The translations under genes and the position numbers were made by a program. 64,000 bases of DNA from Sipunculus nudus (taxonomy: Eukaryota > Annelida > Sipuncula > Golfingiida > Sipunculidae). Position 1 is the stretch's first letter, and each line of letters begins with the position of its first letter. A model generated the notes under the pieces. It did not search any database, was not told the origin of the DNA, and saw nothing but the letters and a program-made list of their open reading frames with translations. The DNA lies in assembly GCA_026874595.1 (NCBI GenBank), contig CM049313.1, forward strand, positions 51,075,659 to 51,139,658, written 5' to 3'. This document shows positions 1 to 59,600 of the stretch, piece after piece.

Positions 1-642
1 CTCTGTTAAGTGGTTAAACTATACTGTACTATTACTACTATATACTATACTATCCTAAGCCTAGTCACTTTACCAATTTGCAATATAAAAATTGCTATAT
101 TTGTTTACTGCCATTTCGATGACTCATTTCCATCATATTTGTCTGAAAAAAAAAATAATAACTATCGGCTTTTGCATACATTGCGCTCGGCTGGCGGAAA
201 TCTTTAAAGTACCAAAGTGTAATAGGAAAGCCAGTGAACGTTCCTTCTGTTTCAAAGCCAAAAAAGTCTGTGATTAATTTCCTATTACACTTAGAAAATC
301 TCAAACTCTTGTATAATTTAGAACTAATTAAAAAACGTATCTCTTTCGGCGAGCTTTTGGTAATTAACATGCATCATTTTTTTTCTTGGGTCAGGCACGG
401 GGAGCGCTCTTTTCCATGAAATTGTATGTGGGTATGTAGGTATGTGAATAGCGCTGTGTTTACGCTATATGAATTATATATATAATTCATTATACTATAC
501 TATGATACACGTAGGCCTATACAATAACACAATGAAATACATTTATAAATATATACCGGTAATGTGACACTGAGAATCATGTATTTTATGTATAGTGATA
601 AAATAATATACAAACGTATACTGTCGACAAACACGCACATAC

Positions 643-711
<69 letters not shown>

Positions 712-1602
712 CCTACTATATATATACGTACCGTATCTATATACCGTACTATATATACCTAATATATAATTTATTTTGGGTGTAAACCCTACATTACAAT
801 AATTAATGATTATAAAATGATAATTACAAAATAAAAATATATATATTTAATAATACGTACCATCTACGGTTAATTGGCTAATTAAAGTACAAGAAGTATG
901 AGTCTTAGCGAGTATTTACATTATTTCCCCAAAAGTTTAAAGTCTCGTCAAATGAATGTTTATCTGTTGAGCCATAAAAATAAACTTCAAGTGCATGAAT
1001 TATGAAATTCAACTGAACATAAAATCTTGACTGAATTCAGGTCGGCATTTGTCAACCTGGTGCAAGTCAGACTGTAGCGCCATCTGTCCTACCAACACCG
1101 CGAAATTTAAACTTGTGACGAGGCACTGGACTGCCAGCTTCATTTTTGTGAGTAAAATAATTTCTCGGCCAGGCTTTTAATGCATTAGGGGATTGATTAC
1201 AATTCAGTAATACCCGCAAGGCTTTACATTTGTTGTGAAAATGCTGCTTGGAAGCGCGAAACGAATAAGTATACCCCTTCTTTTCTCGATATCATGTCGT
1301 TTGCTTATATTATCGCTCAACACATTTTAAAATGGGGGAGGGGGGGGGTGTCAAATGACCAGGCTGATGACAGCTGTACAGGTTCAAATCCAGACTTGTC
1401 ATCTAGTTTTATACAAATTATTAATTTATGAACAGGATAATTATTTTACATTACAAAATAAAATGGAGATACTTTTTCATTTAATTATATTCTAAGGAAA
1501 ATATTATTATAATTATTTTTATTCATAACTTATACCATCATTATTTATAGAGTTGGAGCGGATTATTGAATCCGGTATTCATTTCCAAGATGGGGCTTAA
1601 CT
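1..1602. other. AT-rich intergenic DNA, no gene seen
   Basis: No reading frame here has splice sites or protein-like composition; the short open frames are low-complexity. Visible structure is a perfect 22-bp palindrome at 469-490 (arms ATGAATTATAT), a TA microsatellite at 643-708, and a G-run near 1334-1348. I see no promoter that could be tied to a gene. Confidence 0.7.
643..708. repeat. (TA)n microsatellite
   Basis: Uninterrupted TA dinucleotide run of about 66 bp within AT-rich flanks. Confidence 0.95.
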
Positions 1603-1610
1603 GACTGGAC

Positions 1611-2362
1611 GGGGATGGTATAATTCACTGATCAGCGCGCTGATCAGCGGTCTGCAGTATAAAACGCTGATCAGCGCCCTGATCAGCGATCTTTCAATTA
1701 AAGCATCAATTTCAGAGGAATTAGCACCCATAAAGCAACCTTCGACTATTGTGTGAATAAATATGATTAAAAGACACAATTTCTATCAGTATTACGTATT
1801 TTCAAACATGTATATATTTTTTGTGTTAAATGTTTAAACATGAAACGCAAGCTATACGTGCCAGTGACTATTTCGCTGATCAGCGGTGCTGATCAGCGAC
1901 CTTTTAATCGAAACATTAATATCAGGCAAAATAGCCATCATTTAGCAACCTCCGACTGTCATGTGATTAAATGTGATTTAAAGACACATGTTCTATAAGT
2001 ATTACATATTTACAAACATACGAATACACTTTTAATGTTTTACTTATTATGCATGAAACCTTTCAACCAACTACTATTTCGCTGATCAGCAAACTGCGCA
2101 ATCGCTTGAAGCTGATAAGGTGCTCATTGGCAATGATTTACGTATTTCTTGGTTATGATACCTGTCATCAGTGATTCTCTATAATGGTAACATAGAGGGC
2201 TCTCAGTTGTTTACTTAATTATTCCTGTGAAAACCGAATGACTGCCAAAACATCGTATCACATATAATTTACAAAAAAATCCGTTCCCCACAGGAGATAT
2301 TAGCTGACAGTAGGGGGCGCTGCAGTAATTTGTTGGTAGATTTTCACCGGCCAGGTAATAGA
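1611..2362. repeat. Left long terminal inverted repeat of the 2.85-kb element
   Basis: Matches the reverse complement of 3728-4460 as an imperfect inverted repeat with small indels. Shared landmarks in order are the TGATCAGC clusters near 1626-1690 and 1873-1900, ATGCATGAAACCTTTC near 2048, GATTCTCTATAATGGTA near 2172 and AGTAGGGGGCGC near 2309. Seven of the thirteen TGATCAGC copies lie here. Confidence 0.9.
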
Positions 2363-2573
2363 AAAAATAGCTGAGATTGAAACTAAGTTCGCATGAATTT
2401 TAAAATTTTAATTTATTTATAATATCTTGCACATATATTTAAGTGAAAATGCCACGAATGAACCAACAGCAAAATATTGTCGACTGTGGATTTTTTGCAA
2501 TCGCTAATATTGTTGAATATCGTTTTAATAAATTTGAAAGTAGGCCTATAGGAACTGGTAAAACAACATGTAT

Positions 2574-3005
2574 TTTGATCAGACAAAAGTGAGAGGGCAA
2601 TCATTAATTATTTAGAAGAAGGCATATTTAGTCATTTTTCTAAAGAAACCTTTAAAGGATTTACAATTTAATGGAAGGGTCGATCTACGAAAAATTTCGC
2701 ATTTCAGCAAGTATACAGTATCTGAAAAAATAACATCTTAATATTTATTCTTTGAAGTCTATTATGGCAATAAAAATGTAAACTAATTTGATTTGATCAG
2801 AAAAAAGTGAGAGGGCAATCATTAATTATTTAGAAGAAGGCATATTTAGTCGTTTTTCTAAAGAAACCGTAAAAGGATTTACAATTTAAAGGAAGGGTCT
2901 TCTACGAAAAACTTCCCATTTCAGCAAGTATACAGTATCTGAAAATAACATCTTGATATTTATTCTTTGGAGTTTATTATGGCAATAAAAATGTAAGCTA
3001 ATTTA
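2574..3005. repeat. Tandem duplication inside the transposon (about 218-bp unit, two copies)
   Basis: 2574-2791 and 2792-3005 are near-identical direct copies, each starting TTTGATCAG, continuing through GTGAGAGGGCAATCATTAAT and ending near GGCAATAAAAATGTAA. Few substitutions separate them, so this internal duplication looks recent. No coding potential. Confidence 0.9.
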
Positions 3006-3727
3006 GAGTTTAAGAGTTTAATATTTTATAATACCTAACACATTGATCCCTATAAAAACGATATAAAGTTCTGAATAACAATGCCATTGTAGAATTTAGA
3101 TGTTACATCCATCCTGTTACCTTATTGTTTCAACACCGTTCATCGACATTCACTACCGTTAAAAGTTAAAAAAAAGGTGATGATTTATATTATAGTGTTG
3201 TAATTAAAAGTGTTTACTCCTTCAACCTTTCTAGTACTAATTATATATATGTTGATAGTGTATGCTGTTTTCCAAAATTATGAAAAGCATTCCTATTCCA
3301 ATCATTTTTGAGAAATATATAAGTAACGATGTTAAAGCAATAGATATGCAGATATTTTTACACAATTATGGAAATGTCCTGTTGTAAAATGAAAAAAAAA
3401 TTTGATGTTTTTGTGGAGGAAAAATTAAAACAGGAGTAACCTATCAACATTGTGTTAAAATTGATCAAATCATCTATACAACGGTGTTGAAAATGATTCT
3501 GGCGACCCACCTTTTAAATGCAAAAAAAAGGGGAAATATAAGAGGGATGTAAAGAAACTTGTGAAAGTTTTTAAGGAACGATTATATCATAAATGGAGAG
3601 TGAAAGAATCCTTAGGCTATACTTACACTTCTTAATAAAAATAAGAGGATAATATACATTTAACATTTTTATTTTTGATAAATTTAAATTTTATATACAT
3701 TCATACTAAGTGCATATCTCGGCTATT

Positions 3728-4460
3728 TATATCACCTTGTCGGTGAACACCTGACAAGAAATTACTGCGGCGCCCCCTACTGTTAGCTTATATCTTCGAG
3801 TGGTCGGTGGGGCACTGATATTTTATAGTTGTATAAAGTAGCCTGGTATGGGCAATTTATTGGCAATCACTCGGTTTCACAGGATATAACCAAAACAACT
3901 GAGAGCCTTCAGTAATACCATTATAGAGAATCACCCGTGACAGGTATCTTAGTCAAGAAGTACGTAAATCATTGCCGATCAGCGATTGCACAGTTTGTAG
4001 GTGGTAGAAAGGTTTCATGCATAATAAGTAACACATTAAAAGTGTTTTCGTTTGTTTGTAAATATGAAACACTTATAGAACATGTATCTTTAAAAAACAT
4101 TCTATCATATAATAGAGGGAGGTTGTTATAAGGGGCTAATTTATCTAAAATAAATGCTTGGACTGAAAGTTACCTGATCAGCGCCACTGATCAGCGAAAT
4201 AGTCACTGGCAATGTAACTTGTGTTTCATGTATAATCATGAACACAATAAAAATATATGCATATGTTTGTAAATATGTAATACTGATAGGAATGGTGTCT
4301 TTTTATCATATTTTATCACAAAATAGGCGGAGGTTGCTATATGGGAGATAATTTGCCTGAAATCAATGCTGTCATTTAAAGTTGGCTGATCAGCACGCTG
4401 ATCAGCGTTTTATACTGCAGACCGCTGATCAGCACGCTGATCAGCGAATTATACCCTTCC
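3728..4460. repeat. Right long terminal inverted repeat of the 2.85-kb element
   Basis: Inverted partner of 1611-2362. It carries six of the thirteen TGATCAGC copies (near 4171-4197 and 4384-4446) and ends GAATTATACCCTTCC against the target duplication. Confidence 0.9.
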
Positions 4461-4468
4461 GACTGGAC

Positions 4469-5399
4469 GTCTCATATTAGTTGTAATCAACATAAGCCAT
4501 GACATGCCCGATGATATGACATCGACATGCCTCTTCCTTCTTCATTACATGAATTCTAAACATCATCACGTCTGTCCATATACACCCATAACCTCGTCCA
4601 TGTAAGCCGAATTCTATACTGGCTCCTAAAGTTAAACATGTTATGACTATATGAGGCTCAAGTTTTATGATTTATAATTGCTAAGGCATTGTTGACCATA
4701 TCTGTATATAACTGAAATATATCACTGTTATTAATCAGTATTAGCATTTAGCAATAGTATTGCCTGCTCCATAATTAGTATGGCCAGCCTAAAACCCTGT
4801 ATGTCACGGGTTTTCTGGAATAATGTGTCCCCGTTTGCATAATTCTTACAACTAATAAATGTCAATAACTTTGTTAAATGAATAGTCATATTAAATCATT
4901 TTAAAAACTGTTATGATCCTGAAACAAAAACAAATCTGACAGTACTTAGGGGGCCTAAGTTTTTCAGAGGGGTGTAAAAATACATTGAAAAATCTATGCA
5001 TTGAATTGTTAGCCCTCAATAAAATTGTAATCAGTTCATTTCAATTTTTATTTATTTTTTAGCACGTATTATGACTATCAGTATCATCCCAAAGTCCCCA
5101 GGGAGCTCTCAAATTTGACGTAGCAGTTTGCGATGTCGAAGCTCTTTAATGCATATGTGCCCTTAATCTATTTTAAATGTTCACTGTTTGACAACTCCCA
5201 TTCCCTTAGAAACAATTATGGCAGTGACAAATAGAGGGAGGACTATATTTTTTTTATATTGGTCAATTTACTAACATCCATTTTGGTAAATTGCTTTTCA
5301 AAAAGTCTCACTCTGAAATTTACTACTTAAGTAAGGATTGAATTGATAATTGAATTACAGGTGAAAAATAACTGAATCTATTCTAAGGGCCCCCACAAA
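4469..5399. other. Intergenic, nothing recognised
   Basis: AT-rich sequence with stops in all frames and no recognisable repeat ends. Confidence 0.6.
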
Positions 5400-17797: not shown

Positions 17798-18671
17798 AAA
17801 AATTCATAACCATTAGACCTAGAATTTTCTAACTGTACACCCAGTAAGGTCCTGAGCAAATCTCCTTGGAACCATGAAATTAGGTCATGGTGACCTCTAT
17901 TCTGCGACCTTTGGACTAAACACATGATTTTGAGCAACCAGATAGTCGGAGCACAAATTGTAACCATTAGGCCTAGAAACTTCAGGTAGGTCCTGGCTAA
18001 GTGTCCATTGAAACATGAAATTAGGTCACCATGACCTATTTCTGCAACCTATAAAAATGAAATTTCATATAAGCACCCTGAATGTCAAATGATCACAAAT
18101 CATATCTGTTAGGCCTAGAATCTCCTAACGTAACGTGTGTCCTGGGCAAATCTCCTTGGAAAACTGAAATTAGCTCATGATGACCTATATTCCGCGACAT
18201 ACTGACTGAAAACATGATTTAGAGTACCCAGACAGACGGTGCACAAATTGCATCCATTAGGCCAAGCATCTTATACTGTAAAATTCAAGGAGTTTACGGC
18301 AAATGTCCTTTGAGACATCAAATCAGGTCACCGTGACCTATATTCCGCGACCTATAGGAAAAAGATGTCATGTGAGCCCCCTGAATGCCAGATCGGGTAA
18401 AAATTGTATCCTTTGGGCCTAGAATCTTCAAAAGTAACATTCTGGTAAGTCCTGGGCAAATGTTCCTTGAAACATTAAATTAGGTCATTGTGACCTGTTT
18501 TCTGCGACTTGTAGGAAAAATGTCATATGAGCACTAAATGTCAGAACAAATCGTATCTGTTAGGCCTTGAATCTTCTAACACAACATCATGGTCGGTTCA
18601 AGGCAAATCTGAGTTGAGATGTTCACCTCTATTTTGTGACCTTCTGACAGAAGACATAATTTTGAGCACCA
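17798..18671 (+). repeat. Tandem ~150-bp units carrying ERE-type palindromes
   Basis: About six diverged units share the words TAGGCCTAGAATCTTCTAA, CCTGGGCAAATCTCCTTG, AAATTAGGTCA and TGACCTATATTCTGCGACCT. Five units contain an inverted AGGTCA repeat with a 3-bp spacer: 17882-17896, 18023-18037, 18172-18186 (one mismatch), 18325-18339 and 18482-18496. The copies are spaced 141, 149, 153 and 157 bp apart. Confidence 0.85.
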
Positions 18672-18990
18672 TTTAAATGGATCCACAAGCTTTTTCAAGA
18701 AGTGGGCCCTGTAGCTGTGACCTTGACCCCCTGAACTCAAAATTATAGGGTTCTTCATCGATAGGTAGGAGAACCATATGTGCAAGATGAAAGGTTTTAG
18801 TAAAACGGTTTGGCTTTGAATGGGTCCACAAGCTCTTTCAATAAGTGGGCCCTGTGGCCGTAACCTTCCACCCCATGACCTCAAAATCAATCGGGGGGTT
18901 CTTTATCCATTGGTGGGTGAGCCATATTTGCAAGATGAAAGGTTTTGGTCAAACGGTTTTGCTTTAAATGGGCCCACAAGCTTTTTTTTT
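18672..18990 (+). repeat. Two tandem ~150-bp units of a second repeat
   Basis: Direct copies share CACAAGCTTTTTCAA, AGTGGGCCCTGT, GTGACCTT, GGGTTCTT and GCAAGATGAAAGGTTTT. A third copy starts near 18967 and is cut off. Confidence 0.75.
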
Positions 18991-21900
18991 AAGAAGTTGG
19001 CCTTTTGGCCGTGACCTTTCCATTTTGATGATAAAGTATTACATGATAAGGGCGTACAGAAAATGAAATACCCATGCATTATTTGTGGTCAGGTATTTTT
19101 AGTTAACACTATTCGTGTATGAATGACTAAGAAAAGTTTATTTCAGGCCCTGTCTCTGCACTCTCTCACACAGAGGTAAACATGGATAGGAATTTGTAAG
19201 GACAGGATTCATGCGCGTTCTCACTAAAGTCTTACAAAGTCTTACCTTTCATTTTGCAAAAAAAAAGTCTTACTTTTCTTACATTTTAGAGGATAGGTTC
19301 TTGTTACAGTTTTAATCGAGGAGGCAAATAAATGGCTACCATAGACCTTCAAGTAGCAACATTTTCAAAGCTTGTTCCTTTAAGTAACCGTAACGTTACT
19401 TCAGACGTCATCCACATGTATAGAATACCGGGGGTTTCATGACCATGTGGGGCACCTCTAAAGAATTTTAAAAGCTGATAAATTCGAATCAAAAGACATG
19501 CATGCACAAGTTTCGGTGGTGTGAAAGGGGGCTCAAAAGTTTCGCGCCAGTTCATCTCTGATTATCATGAAAATTTGCCGAAATCATGTAGCCTCTGCGG
19601 TTTCTACATGTCAGCGGATGCGGGTTAACTACGTTGGGAACTGACCCACCGACGATCCCGTAAATCTGTGTGTCTGTTGGCAATGCAAACACGTCAGAAA
19701 GAATTTTCAGAAACATTGACCTTAACATGAGACAGCTTGTTCCTAAAATAGCAATTATCTTTTTTTGTTCATGTGTGAAAATATTTGACAGCACTTTCAA
19801 TTATATTGTTTGACTTCTATATATGGATAGCAGGGTTCGTAAACCATTAAAAGGTGCTTGAAAGCGTGATGGGTAAATTAGGTATGTGTGGAAAAGTGCC
19901 AGAAAAAGGAAGTTGAAATAAAAATTTGTAATTGAGCAGGTGTTCAGAGGATTTTAAAGTGATTCTCAAAGAAGTCAGCATTTATATAACCCCATACCAG
20001 AACACGGCATGATCTCTGTATATACGACTGACGTGTGTTCCTTAGGAACACTTGAGACAAAAATATAGGAGTTTATAGGTATTTCCAATTATAGGAGTTG
20101 GTAGGTTATTATTTCAAATGATGGCCACCTCTTTCGTTTCATACATGGCACAACATCTGTGATATTTAGACACATTCACCTCATATGCTTAATAGAGAAT
20201 TAATATTGGGTATCAATTTTTCAATCTCGTTTTTTAGTCCTTGCCCTACCCCTTTCCCAATTATGATTTTCCCTAAGGAATGAGCACTAATCTTTTCTCG
20301 AACATATAGTTCAGAATATGCAAGTATAAATGGACCTCGAAAAATTGCTTGGCTTACATCCAAAACAACCAGAGATATAATAATGGATTATTAAGTGAAA
20401 TACATGCCTTACATAGAATCGAAAATGGAAATACAGGCGCCACATATTTTAATGGTAAATATATAAAATGAGCATCGATTTCAACAGTAATGGGGACCGT
20501 TCGCAACATTCGTCCGCCACCGCTAACACACTTCGGCTTGTCTTGGAAGCACTGCTTGACAAGTGTATGTATACATGTACATCCCTCATCTGGTCGATCA
20601 TACGACAATACCTGTGATCTTATTTAAGTCTCATACGAAGCCAAAATAAGAAACAAAAGTAGCTTAAGCCTTAGGACTAAAAACTTGACTTCTTTACTTT
20701 TTTATTCTCCGCAAAGCAGTGTAAATAACTATTAATACTTATACAATCATTATAAATAAAATTAAACCTCTCGTTAAACCTGTAACAAACTGACATGACA
20801 ATGAGCTGCATGAAAGTACATTCTTATTTTTGGGACATTATCAATAGAACTTGATCATATTTACAGGCCAAATAATTTATTTTGAGATAATCTTTAATAA
20901 GCATACTTCTTCATATCTATAATATATATAAAGTCCTAAACCTTTTTTACTGTTATTAACGTGACCCTTTATAAGCATCATGGTTCCCGGAGTTATAGAT
21001 ATACCGTTCTTGAAACTCTCCCAAAGAACAATCTATCTTTTCTATCTGTTTCTATTTTAAGCCAAAACTCCCACGGCAATCACGTAAAAAGTCTGCACAG
21101 ATATACGTATACCCGATATGTCTGTGTAAAAATAACAGCGATGGTCCTATTTTGGTTACTACCGTCTAGATAGATACCTGCCCGGCTTCACACCAGTAAC
21201 GAAAGTTGGACTTTCTTGGCATGTGATGATAAATCCGAAAGGGTAGAATCCCTGAACAAAATTGTCGTTAGCTTGCAGATATATGCCTAAAAATTCGCGA
21301 TATATTTCATAGGTATTTACTCTAGGTGTGTGACTGTGTGAGCAGTTCTAGGATTACAGGTCAAGTGTTCTGGTCACAGCCATCTGTTGAATCCAGTGTC
21401 CTTGGACCAATCAATTTGCCTTCATAGCCGCACTGGCTTGTTTTCTCGTTGTAACACGCACCAGACGAAATATGATTAATGTAAACCCATAACGTCGGCT
21501 ATATCCTGCCGTCAAGAGCAGTTACACTAGTATAAGTCTGGATATCGGGGCAGTAGTAGAGGATTTAGCGCACGCTATGTATCGTGTGCAGGGGTTTCTA
21601 TAATCCCCCAGTACAATAACGGCAAATGGTCGAAAGATCTTGGCAACGGCAACTTCCGGTGTTTTGGTATTCGTGTTTTAAGCAACAGCCTGCTTGTTCC
21701 TCTCTTAAGATACTATGCAGATAGCTGGTCAAGTTTCATTCAGCATCGAATGGATTAAAATAATAGTAAGTCTATATCTATTCTGTTTATATATTTTTCG
21801 AGCAATATTTTATTGCAAATTATAAGAATGTAGGAAATAGGCATGATACTATTCAGTTATTTTCATTTGTGAGCATTACTGCATGTCAAATATTATAAAA

Positions 21901-56681: not shown

Positions 56682-59600
56682 CTGGAACAGATGTACATAA
56701 AATGGAAAATCTTTTGGGTGGATCTAGGACAAACTGCGATAATCTAATATAAATTTATATTATACCTTTATATTATACATTTAGATTTAGAATACACATG
56801 AAAATGTGTACAATAATTAAACTGATTATACTGAAATTTACACCCACACATTATACATATAATATATAATATATATATATATATATAAATGTATAAATAA
56901 TATATATATATATACATATATATATACATAATTATTATAATTCAAATTATTATTATTTTCATTTTTATTATTATCATTTTTATTTATCGGATCGTTCAAG
57001 GAAATTATATTATATATGTACCTGAATAGATGTTGATTATAAAACGATACTTGACTATGCAGTAATATGACAGTCATTTGCACTAAAAGCTTCATCTGCC
57101 TGTTTTCCCCGTATTCTTATATGTATTAAAGTCTTTCCAAGCAATCTACGCAGAGCAATCAAATCTTACAAGATTACCACTCTGCTGTTTAAGGCTTGTG
57201 ATTCAAGAAACCAATTCCCTAAAAAGCACTGGGGTCTCTTAAAAAACTTCAACCGGTAATCAAACTGGATTAAAACAAGTGACCCATGGGTCATGACGCT
57301 CAGCTGACTGGGAAGAGATTCGCAAATTTTATATCAATTTTATTCAACTGAAGCATCAAACAGATTAACCAACAGGCCAAGATTGTGTCTGTATTTATAT
57401 ATCTCAAAAAATAGAGAAAAAATGCGTAAACTTTAAAAAAAATACAGGTGGCTCCACCAGCCTGCAGAAACTAATAAAAACACTAAATGGTCAATGTCCA
57501 TGCAAAGAATCATGGTGATTTCTGCATAAATTGTTCAGATACTGTAGCTTTTGTATCAAATTTTCCATTATTCAAGGGAAACTTCGGAGTCGTATAGCAT
57601 GAAGGATATGGGTAACAGAGACCTAATTTTAGGTTTCCACAGACACTCTCATGGGCCTCCTTGTATGACAAGAATGAAGATTCTAGGTTCAGTTGTTACA
57701 ATTTGTGCCACGTTAACAGATGACAGCATTCTTAAAGGTCTCAAAAATAGAGAAAAAAATTCGAAAAAATTGAATAAAATATAGGTGGCACCACCAGTCT
57801 GAAGAAACTGATGAAACACTCCATAATCAATATCCATGCAAAGAATCATGGTGACGTCTGCATTAGTTGTTCAGATACTTCAGCTTTTGTATAAAATTGT
57901 CCATTATTCTGAGGGATACTTCGGAGTCCTATAGCTTGAAGGATATGGGAAACAGAGAACTAATTTCAGGTTTCCACAGACACTTTTCAAGGGCCTCCTT
58001 GCATGACAAGAATGAAGATTCTAGATCCAATGGTTACGATTTGCACCCTGTTGACAGATAGCTACATCTTTTAAGGTCTCAAAAATAGAGAAAAAAATCG
58101 TAAAAATTTGAAAAAAGCCCCATAGCTTGAAGAATATAGGAAACAGAGACCTAATTCCAGGTTTCCAGGGAGACACTAGTCTGCAGAAACTGATGAAACA
58201 TCTCATGATCTCTTTGTATGAAATTTTTAACTATTCTAGGAGGTACTTTGGGGCGCTATAGCTCATAGGATATGGGTAACAGAAACCTTATTTCTGGTTT
58301 CCATGGAGACTTTTCAAACGTCTCTCAGTGTGTCAAGAATGAAGATTCTAGGTCCAGTCTTTACGATTTGTGCCCTGTTAACAGATGTTCACATTTTTAA
58401 AGGTCTCAAAAATAGAGAAAAAAATTCGTAAAAAATCGAAAAATACAGGTGGCGCCACCAGTCTGGTACTTGTGGGGTACTTTGGGGCACCATAGCTCGA
58501 AGGATATGGGCAACAGAGACCTGATTTCTAGTTTCCAAGGAGATTTTTCATGGACCTCTCAGAATGTCAAGTTACAAGATTCTACGTCCAGCGGTTACGA
58601 TTTGTGCCGGGTTAACGGACAGACGGACAGACAGACGGACAGACGGACGACGGAAAAGAGTGATCGCTATAGCTTAGATGACTTACAGTCAGCTGAGCTA
58701 AAAAGCTACTTGCAACCAGTGGACGAATGTACTCATTATTGACAGTTCTGTTTCCAAGTAATCATGAATGAATTGACAAAATTACTGACACCTAGTTCAC
58801 AAATGTATCTCATTAAAATAGGTTTAATTAAATACTGCCTTTATATCATGAACTAATTATGGTATATGAAAAAGTGTAGGTGCAATTTTTGTGGTTTCTT
58901 TTTTAATATCCCTGGATTATTCTATACTGATTGTCGCAATTATGAAGCAAAACTTACGTATATCGCATCTGTCCCCTGCGAATCCATCTTCACACTTGCC
59001 TGACAGACACTTGCCGTCTGTCGCCCGACAACTGCTACCAGAACATCTTCCGCAAGTAGAAAGGCATTTCAGACCCCATTTGTTGGGAGGACAAGCTATA
59101 AAGAGATATTTCCATATATATACAACGAAGTGATTTTGTAAAATATTGGCGAGGTCGCAGAAAAAAAATCACCGCTTATAAAATACCACTATTTGAAATA
59201 TTTACAACAAGAGCATGTCTACTGTACTCGGTTCAGGTAAACACCCTATGCTAAACCACCTGGAGATTTAAAAATAAAGTATAACAAAGTTTCAACCCCT
59301 GAAAAAATATAGAACGGACATTTTATGACCATCTGTAATGGCTCTTTATACCCGGTCATTAGTTTTAACACAGTCAAGATACGATTTGTGTTAGTGGCGC
59401 TTTACTTTGACATGTAAAACTGTAAGAATCACAGAATAATGATATCTCAAATGCATTAAAAAAATAAAGATCAATCATAACTGTTAATCAACGATTAACT
59501 AATGTAATGTTTGACACGGCACATTTTAACTGAATAAATATAGCCCTTACTTTGTCTACACTGAGGACCCGAGAAACCGATCTGGCAAAGTCCCTCGTGA

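What the first reader, a model, noticed from the sequence alone, without database searches (positions are those of the whole stretch)
1603..4468. 2.85-kb transposon with >700-bp inverted arms and TGATCAGC arrays
The boundaries are set by a perfect 8-bp duplication (GACTGGAC). Unlike ordinary MITEs, the arms make up about half the element and carry 13 TGATCAGC cores, mostly as the 10-bp palindrome GCTGATCAGC in closely spaced pairs. Such paired palindromes could be subterminal transposase-binding sites. The element could also fold into a very long hairpin when transcribed and feed small-RNA silencing. The superfamily cannot be assigned from the ends I see.
Basis: partly seen in the sequence, partly recalled or inferred. 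Interest (0 to 1): 0.8.

Follow-up and report, generated by a model that had tools for sequence, protein, structure and literature searches.

The report
Non-coding foldback transposon, multi-copy family
This is one copy of an ordinary but apparently unnamed family of non-coding 'foldback' jumping genes that are scattered through a large eukaryotic genome and must be moved by an enzyme made elsewhere.

Summary
The element is window 1612-4460 (2,849 bp) and its target-site duplication is 9 bp (GACTGGACG, 1603-1611 and 4461-4469), not 8 bp. The arms are about 810 bp (about 76% alike) and hold 13 TGATCAGC cores, 9 of them as perfect GCTGATCAGC.

It belongs to a dispersed family. The consensus tip (26-mer) occurs 270 times genome-wide at up to 3 mismatches; the reversed control occurs 0 times. 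Of 22 tip pairs examined, 16 have a perfect 9-bp duplication, all different. Two copies are 99.3% alike over 3.6 kb at different targets, so movement was recent. No transposase was recognised in the copies read.

Best reading: a non-autonomous foldback-type cut-and-paste transposon moved in trans, most likely by a Mutator-like (MULE) transposase. The superfamily is inferred from duplication length and arm structure; no partner gene was found, and Merlin remains a rival. The palindromes are plausible transposase-binding repeats, as in Galileo, but conservation gives no clear support. The structure is known from FB4, Tetris, Tm1 and Muta1; only the family looks new. Small-RNA claims could not be tested.

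The parts
1603..1611 (+). left target-site duplication GACTGGACG (9 bp)
4461..4469 (+). right target-site duplication GACTGGACG (9 bp)
1612..4460 (.). the whole non-autonomous element, 2,849 bp
   Evidence: tips coincide with family consensus GGGAGGGTATAATT... in other copies
1612..2424 (+). left inverted arm, with sub-repeats about 210 bp apart
3670..4460 (-). right inverted arm
1612..1690 (+). left tip: GGGATGGTATAATT followed by two palindrome clusters (1625-1649, 1665-1689) that can pair as a hairpin stem of about 22 bp
   Evidence: z -6.6
4382..4460 (-). right tip: GGAAGGGTATAATTCG... with two palindrome clusters (4377-4407, 4423-4453) that can pair as a hairpin stem of about 23 bp
   Evidence: z -8.3
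1629..1687 (.). 4 TGATCAGC cores of the left tip (1629, 1641, 1668, 1680)
1877..1897 (.). 2 TGATCAGC cores (1877, 1890), inner left arm
2083..2090 (.). 1 TGATCAGC core, inner left arm
4175..4195 (.). 2 TGATCAGC cores (4175, 4188), inner right arm
4387..4445 (.). 4 TGATCAGC cores of the right tip (4387, 4399, 4426, 4438)
2425..3669 (.). non-coding middle; longest stop-free stretch of the element trimmed by 800 bp at each end is 64 aa, no more than shuffled sequence
2574..3004 (.). two adjacent direct repeats of about 214 bp (2574-2789, 2792-3004; 93%)
1..4258 (.). right-hand unit of a 4.6-kb tandem duplication (begins about 350 bp left of the window); the left-hand unit holds a second, right-truncated copy of the element

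Best explanation
A non-autonomous, foldback-type cut-and-paste DNA transposon. A transposase supplied in trans recognises the shared tips (GGGAGGGTATAATT plus repeated CGCTGATCAGCG palindromes), cuts at both ends and inserts the element at a staggered cut that leaves a 9-bp duplication. Shown here: the family, the fixed tips, 9-bp duplications at 16 unrelated targets, recent movement, and no recognisable coding capacity in the copies read. Inferred: that the transposase is Mutator-like (MULE), and that the repeated palindromes are its binding sites. The claim 'non-autonomous transposon' alone stands at about 0.97; 'MULE-mobilised' at about 0.6.
For: The tip 26-mer occurs 270 times at up to 3 mismatches and 0 times in the reversed control; 152 exact copies form 50 facing pairs closer than 15 kb, median 3,225 bp. 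A perfect 9-bp duplication is found in 13 of 18 pairs plus 3 of 4 further pairs; the 16 are all different 9-mers with no obvious motif. A 322-bp copy with its own 9-bp duplication shows that the tips plus part of one arm suffice. L044 and L047 are 99.3% alike over 3.6 kb with different duplications. In 15 copies no middle has an open frame clearly beyond chance, and 19 of the longest stop-free frames from copies and their inserts gave no Pfam match that reaches its cut-off. MULE transposases are present in number: 131 hits, 43 of them with an open frame of exactly 607 aa by my count. Literature: mosquito MULEs have 8-9 bp duplications, mostly TIRs over 100 bp with subterminal short repeats, and many non-autonomous derivatives (PMC5225508, passages); FB4 with 9-10 bp duplications and ~700-bp TIRs is assigned to MULE (PMC8277862, passages); Tm1 is a Mutator/Foldback with 9-bp duplications (PMC3169594, abstract, section 9 and first part of section 11).
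Against: No transposase gene was found between the tips in the copies read, and 0 of 131 MULE hits lie within 85 kb of a listed tip or arm, so the partner is not identified. Merlin transposons share GG tips and 8-9 bp duplications (PMC8101967, passages). One survey calls MULEs rare in animal genomes (median 0; PMC8277862, passages), if this host is an animal. The palindromes are not clearly more conserved than neighbouring arm sequence.
Confidence: 0.63

Rival explanations
1. The same kind of non-autonomous element, but moved by a Merlin (IS1595-like) transposase.
For: Merlin elements have 5'-GG tips, 8- or 9-bp duplications and TIRs of 24-462 bp (PMC8101967, passages). Merlin-type transposase genes are numerous here (150 scored of 209 candidates), and 5 of the 110 hits on the 17 large contigs lie within 15 kb of a family member against 0.25 expected (the radius was chosen after seeing the data).
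Against: All five lie outside the tips. In the one examined (L027), LINE-like debris separates the frame from the element (the LINE label is my own reading and Pfam gave no hit). About 300 bp of flank beside two others is unrelated between them. The three closest relatives of the C4 fragment are not near listed family members. Arms of about 810 bp exceed the published Merlin range, and only 9-bp duplications were seen.
Confidence: 0.2
2. The partner transposase belongs to another or extinct lineage (P-like as in Galileo, hAT, or unclassified).
For: Foldback structure has arisen in several superfamilies (PMC3169594 and PMC4079207, passages). No partner found.
Against: hAT makes 8-bp and Galileo 7-bp duplications (recalled) and the 16 intact pairs here have 9. 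0 of 150 scored hAT hits (of 667 candidates) lie within 15 kb of a family member.
Confidence: 0.15
3. Not a transposon: a local inverted duplication or assembly artefact.
For: The locus does lie in a 4.6-kb tandem duplication. One other family locus sits in a large inverted duplication and another has mirror-image flanks over the 18 bp read.
Against: Identical tips at about 106 dispersed loci, and distinct 9-bp duplications at 16 of the 22 pairs read.
Confidence: 0.02

Closest known systems
Drosophila Foldback FB4 (assigned to MULE)
   Same: Non-autonomous, arms of several hundred bp, 9-10 bp duplications, partner transposase unknown (PMC8277862, passages seen).
   Different: Sequence not compared here; arm repeats here are palindrome pairs in units about 210 bp apart.
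Tetris, foldback element of Drosophila virilis
   Same: Long modular TIRs with internal repeats, non-coding middle, 8-10 bp duplications, no autonomous copy found, placed in Mutator by inference (PMC4079207, passages seen).
   Different: Perfect duplications here are uniformly 9 bp; many more intact copies; sequences not compared.
Tm1, Mutator/Foldback family of root-knot nematodes
   Same: Composite repeat-bearing TIRs, 9-bp duplications, many non-autonomous members (PMC3169594, abstract, section 9 and first part of section 11 seen).
   Different: Tm1 has a transposase-encoding member and asymmetric end motifs; here both ends share one tip and no coding member is known.
Muta1 and other mosquito MULEs
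   Same: Palindromic terminal motif, tandem 9-15 bp subterminal repeats, hundreds of non-autonomous derivatives, 8-9 bp duplications (PMC5225508, passages seen).
   Different: TIRs quoted for Muta1 and Muta5 are 145 and 151 bp; arms here are about 810 bp.
Galileo (P superfamily, foldback-like)
   Same: Long TIRs with repeated sites that bind the transposase's THAP domain (PMC3688188, abstract seen).
   Different: P-type transposase and 7-bp duplication (recalled); 9 bp here.
Merlin / IS1595-like transposons
   Same: GG tips, 8-9 bp duplications (PMC8101967, passages seen).
   Different: TIRs of 24-462 bp in that description; arms here are about 810 bp.

Membership tests
Non-autonomous TIR (cut-and-paste) DNA transposon | Dispersed copies with the same ends and fixed-length target-site duplications | tested here: met
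   16 of 22 pairs with a perfect 9-bp duplication
Non-autonomous TIR (cut-and-paste) DNA transposon | No transposase coding capacity | tested here: met
   15 copies for frames; 19 stop-free frames for Pfam, none over a cut-off; copies not read may differ
Foldback elements (structural class) | Long arms built of internal repeats around a non-coding middle | tested here: met
Mutator-like (MULE) | Target-site duplication of 8-11 bp, usually 9 | tested here: met
Mutator-like (MULE) | Long TIRs (>100 bp) | tested here: met
Mutator-like (MULE) | MULE transposase in an autonomous member with the same TIRs | tested here: inconclusive
   131 MULE hits, none within 85 kb of the listed tips or arms; 102 of 252 first-look candidates were not scored, and the 118 tips with 1-3 mismatches were not listed
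Merlin | GG tips and 8-9 bp duplication | tested here: met
Merlin | TIRs of 24-462 bp | tested here: not met
   arms about 810 bp, if the whole arm is counted as TIR
Merlin | IS1595-type transposase between the tips | tested here: inconclusive
   the 5 of 110 hits within 15 kb all lie outside the tips; 59 of 209 candidates were not scored
hAT / P | 8-bp (hAT) or 7-8-bp (P) duplication (recalled) | tested here: not met
   9 bp in all 16 intact pairs

The most novel reading that the evidence does not exclude
A foldback family moved by a transposase outside Mutator (Merlin or an unclassified lineage), whose long symmetric arms also seed large inverted duplications: at C10:6852047 the element sits in the middle of mirror-image host DNA, C6:54626603 looks the same over the 18 bp of flank read, and C9:51624418 may be an older case.
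Probability: 0.15. Interest if true: 0.4.

Novelty: new member of a known kind. Interest (0 to 1): 0.2.

Why it matters
It adds one well-delimited family to the foldback transposons, a class whose mobilising enzymes are often unknown. It has about a hundred loci, sharp tips, 9-bp duplications, recent copies and a 322-bp minimal copy, so it would be a convenient system to ask whether repeated palindromes in long arms are transposase-binding arrays. It does not overturn anything known.

Tried and rejected
An 8-bp duplication was rejected: the base next to GGG varies between copies.

Sea-urchin TU elements, recalled as 8-bp foldbacks, were searched in print (no listed paper holds the term) and no sequence comparison was possible.

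Autonomous copies were sought as long tip pairs. C8:54569251 (6.4 kb, L051) carries a 3.2-kb foreign insert flanked by (C)ATAATTAT, 8 or 9 bp. C3:20882389 (9.5 kb) is one insertion with matching 9-bp duplications; the 5.6 kb of it that was read (L052) enters DNA unlike the family within the right arm and has no frame above 99 aa. C6:54626603 (12 kb) has mirror flanks over the 18 bp read on each side; its middle was not read. C17:43885458 (4.55 kb) has a 9-bp duplication but its middle was not read. Further long pairs implied (C2:70857359, C4:84234349, C10:65119903) were not read through. L027 shows an integrase-like frame (my reading, not tested) inside the C4 one.

A structural link between Merlin genes and the elements was tested and dropped: flanks differ and similarity stops at the tips. 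The 15-kb radius and the facing orientation of those hits were noticed after the fact.

Concerted evolution of the two arms of one copy was not general: mean within-copy identity 0.847 against 0.841 between copies.

The tip was absent from viral contigs and genome contigs (0 exact matches each), and three tip strings were absent from the paper library (0 papers). The shorter GCTGATCAGC is in 108 papers; the 20 listed have titles on vectors, imaging and other unrelated subjects.

The window itself gave no Rfam match, no tRNA, and no Pfam match over a cut-off in ten of its longer frames. Host naming was attempted only through a chromosome-number search of papers and was left open. The search for a mollusc-specific family did not complete.

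Full report
WHAT IS THERE. The window lies in a 1.43-Gb genome in 153 contigs at C8:51075659-51139658. It is eukaryotic by size; I think it an animal but did not establish the host. The element is window 1612-4460. Its ends are GGGATGGTATAATTCACTGATCAGCG on the left and, read inward from the right, GGAAGGGTATAATTCGCTGATCAGCG. It is flanked by the direct repeat GACTGGACG at 1603-1611 and 4461-4469.

The arms run inward about 810 bp and are 75.8% alike over 834 columns. The core TGATCAGC occurs 13 times on the plus strand inside the element. In the whole window it has 24 matches on both strands, against 1.46 expected and at most 8 in 100 shuffles.

Each tip carries two palindrome clusters that can pair with one another as a hairpin stem of about 22-23 bp (single-strand DNA fold z -6.6 and -8.3). 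Inside the arms a unit recurs at about 210 bp. The middle is non-coding, with two adjacent repeats of about 214 bp (2574-2789 and 2792-3004, 93%).

THE FAMILY. Searching the genome with the left 290 bp gave 119 matching pieces from 40 scored places out of 317 candidates. The consensus 26-mer tip has 270 occurrences at up to 3 mismatches (132 + 138), while the reversed control has none. Listing exact tips by the preceding base gave 69 (A/T) and 83 (C/G), 152 in all. They form 50 facing pairs closer than 15 kb, from 322 to 12,031 bp, median 3,225 bp. Tips and arms together make about 106 loci.

I read 20 loci of 7-10 kb plus smaller pieces. Four of the 20 loci (L031, L032, L035, L039) were not counted for duplications, because no second tip was recognised or, for L031, the copy is truncated. 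The other 16, this copy and L051 make 18 pairs tested at ends fixed as GGG...CCC. Thirteen have a perfect 9-bp duplication, one has it with two mismatches, four have none, and none has a perfect 8- or 10-bp repeat instead. Allowing the ends to shift by up to two bases, 7 of the 11 perfect pairs can be read as 10 or 11 bp, because a flank base happens to equal an end base of the element. Three of four further pairs also have perfect 9-mers. The 16 perfect duplications, this one included, are all different and share no obvious motif.

The smallest copy read is 322 bp, consists of tips and part of one arm, and has its own duplication TGTTGAAAC. Two copies, on C2 and C4, are 99.3% identical over 3.6 kb and sit in different targets, so the family moved recently. 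Arm identity between copies averages 0.84.

CODING CAPACITY AND THE PARTNER. In 15 copies the longest stop-free frame of the middle is within the range of shuffled sequence; the lowest count of shuffles reaching the observed value is 6 of 100. The longest stop-free frame in these 15 whole elements is 114 aa. Nineteen of the longer frames, two of them from foreign inserts, gave no Pfam match over a cut-off.

The genome has many MULE transposase genes: 131 hits from 150 scored of 252 candidates, 43 of them (my count) with an open frame of exactly 607 aa. None lies within 85 kb of a listed tip or arm. hAT hits: 0 of 150 scored (667 candidates) within 15 kb. Merlin/IS1595 hits: 150 scored of 209, of which 110 are on the 17 large contigs and 40 on small ones that I left out of the distance count; 5 of the 110 lie within 15 kb of a family member against 0.25 expected. 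These five are outside the tips. In L027 the transposase frame is followed by debris that looks to me like a LINE before the tip begins (no Pfam support). About 300 bp of flank of two other cases is unrelated between them. I treat this as an unexplained neighbourhood effect, not as the partner. Long tip pairs that might have been autonomous held foreign insertions or mirror flanks where they could be read.

HOW IT MOST LIKELY WORKS. A transposase made elsewhere binds the repeated sites in the arms, pairs the two ends, excises the element and inserts it at a 9-bp staggered cut. The last two steps leave the observed duplications and tips. Binding at the palindromes is inferred. For Galileo, footprinting found a binding site of the transposase's THAP domain, and further sites lie in the tandem repeats of the long arms; the authors suggest these supply specificity (PMC3688188, abstract). 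In mosquito MULEs long TIRs with 9-15 bp subterminal repeats are usual (PMC5225508, passages).

Conservation gives mixed evidence for a special role. In the first 105 bp cores and surroundings are equally conserved (0.957 v 0.959). At 106-700 cores are higher (0.923 v 0.874), but the arm decays inward, and against windows from 106-490 the three inner sites are not exceptional (0.909 v 0.904, p 0.41).

Mutator is favoured because the intact duplications are 9 bp and because arms of several hundred bp with internal repeats fit FB4 (PMC8277862, passages), Tetris (PMC4079207, passages) and Tm1 (PMC3169594, abstract, section 9, first part of section 11). [quoted passage not shown] MULE TIRs are given as typically 100-500 bp with 9-11 bp duplications in plants (PMC3310237, passages), so arms of 810 bp are long for that group too. 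MULEs are described as rare in animals (PMC8277862, passages), yet this genome has many. Merlin shares GG tips and 8-9 bp duplications, but its TIRs are described as 24-462 bp (PMC8101967, passages). A survey of bivalve transposons was consulted by passages only (PMC10294476); the passages seen do not identify this family.

LOCAL HISTORY. The element sits in a 4.6-kb tandem duplication: C8:51070684-51075281 and 51075307-51079916, 98.5% identical. The upstream unit carries a second copy with the same left flank that ends at about element position 2,644, so the duplication happened after insertion and one breakpoint lies in the right arm. Another family locus, L036, is mirror-flanked: inverted arms of 2.1 kb, 98.5% alike, extend 1.3 kb into host DNA. 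C6:54626603-54638633 has mirror flanks over the 18 bp read. L041 has an older inverted flank, 82.6% over 977 bp. These may be foldback-driven inverted duplications; an assembly artefact is not excluded.

NOVELTY. The three tip strings searched are in no held paper (0 papers) and the tips had no exact match in the viral and prokaryote contig collections. Repbase and Dfam could not be searched. I file it as a new, probably unnamed, family of a well-known kind.

Noticed in passing
C8:51070684-51079916 (window 1-4258 and the 5 kb to its left): A 4.6-kb tandem duplication (98.5%) whose breakpoint lies inside the element's right arm; the upstream unit carries a second, truncated copy.
   Followed up: yes
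L036 (C10:6850047-6858000) and C6:54626585-54638651: L036 lies in the centre of an inverted duplication that extends 1.3 kb into host DNA on both sides; the C6 copy has reverse-complement flanks over the 18 bp read. This explains their missing direct duplications. L041 (C9) shows an older, weaker case.
   Followed up: partly
contig C5 of G000 (at least 91.9 Mb): No family member found: 0 of 152 exact tips and none among the 100 of 134 places listed, C1 to C10, for a second arm pattern. About 7 loci were expected (P about 8e-4 for C5 alone, with the lengths of C1, C5 and C15 estimated), although MULE, hAT and Merlin genes are present on C5.
   Followed up: partly
C4:84232657, C2:57657844, C7:80437730, C17:22929752, C12:492167: Merlin/IS1595 transposase fragments lie 1.7-13.5 kb from family members, about 20 times more often than expected, and the 3' ends of all five point towards the element; reason unknown.
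   Followed up: partly
contigs C101-C138 of G000: 40 of the 150 scored IS1595 hits sit on these small contigs, many with open frames of the same length (321, 329 or 342 aa); the contigs may be of foreign (for instance bacterial) origin.
   Followed up: no
window 57402-58465: Tandem array of a unit of about 337 bp (2-3 copies, about 77-83% alike).
   Followed up: no
window 17801-18670 and 18672-19018: Diverged tandem repeats (units of about 140-150 bp) beside each other.
   Followed up: no
L051 249-3417: Foreign 3.2-kb insert inside a family member, flanked by the repeat (C)ATAATTAT (8 or 9 bp), with ends unlike the family's.
   Followed up: partly
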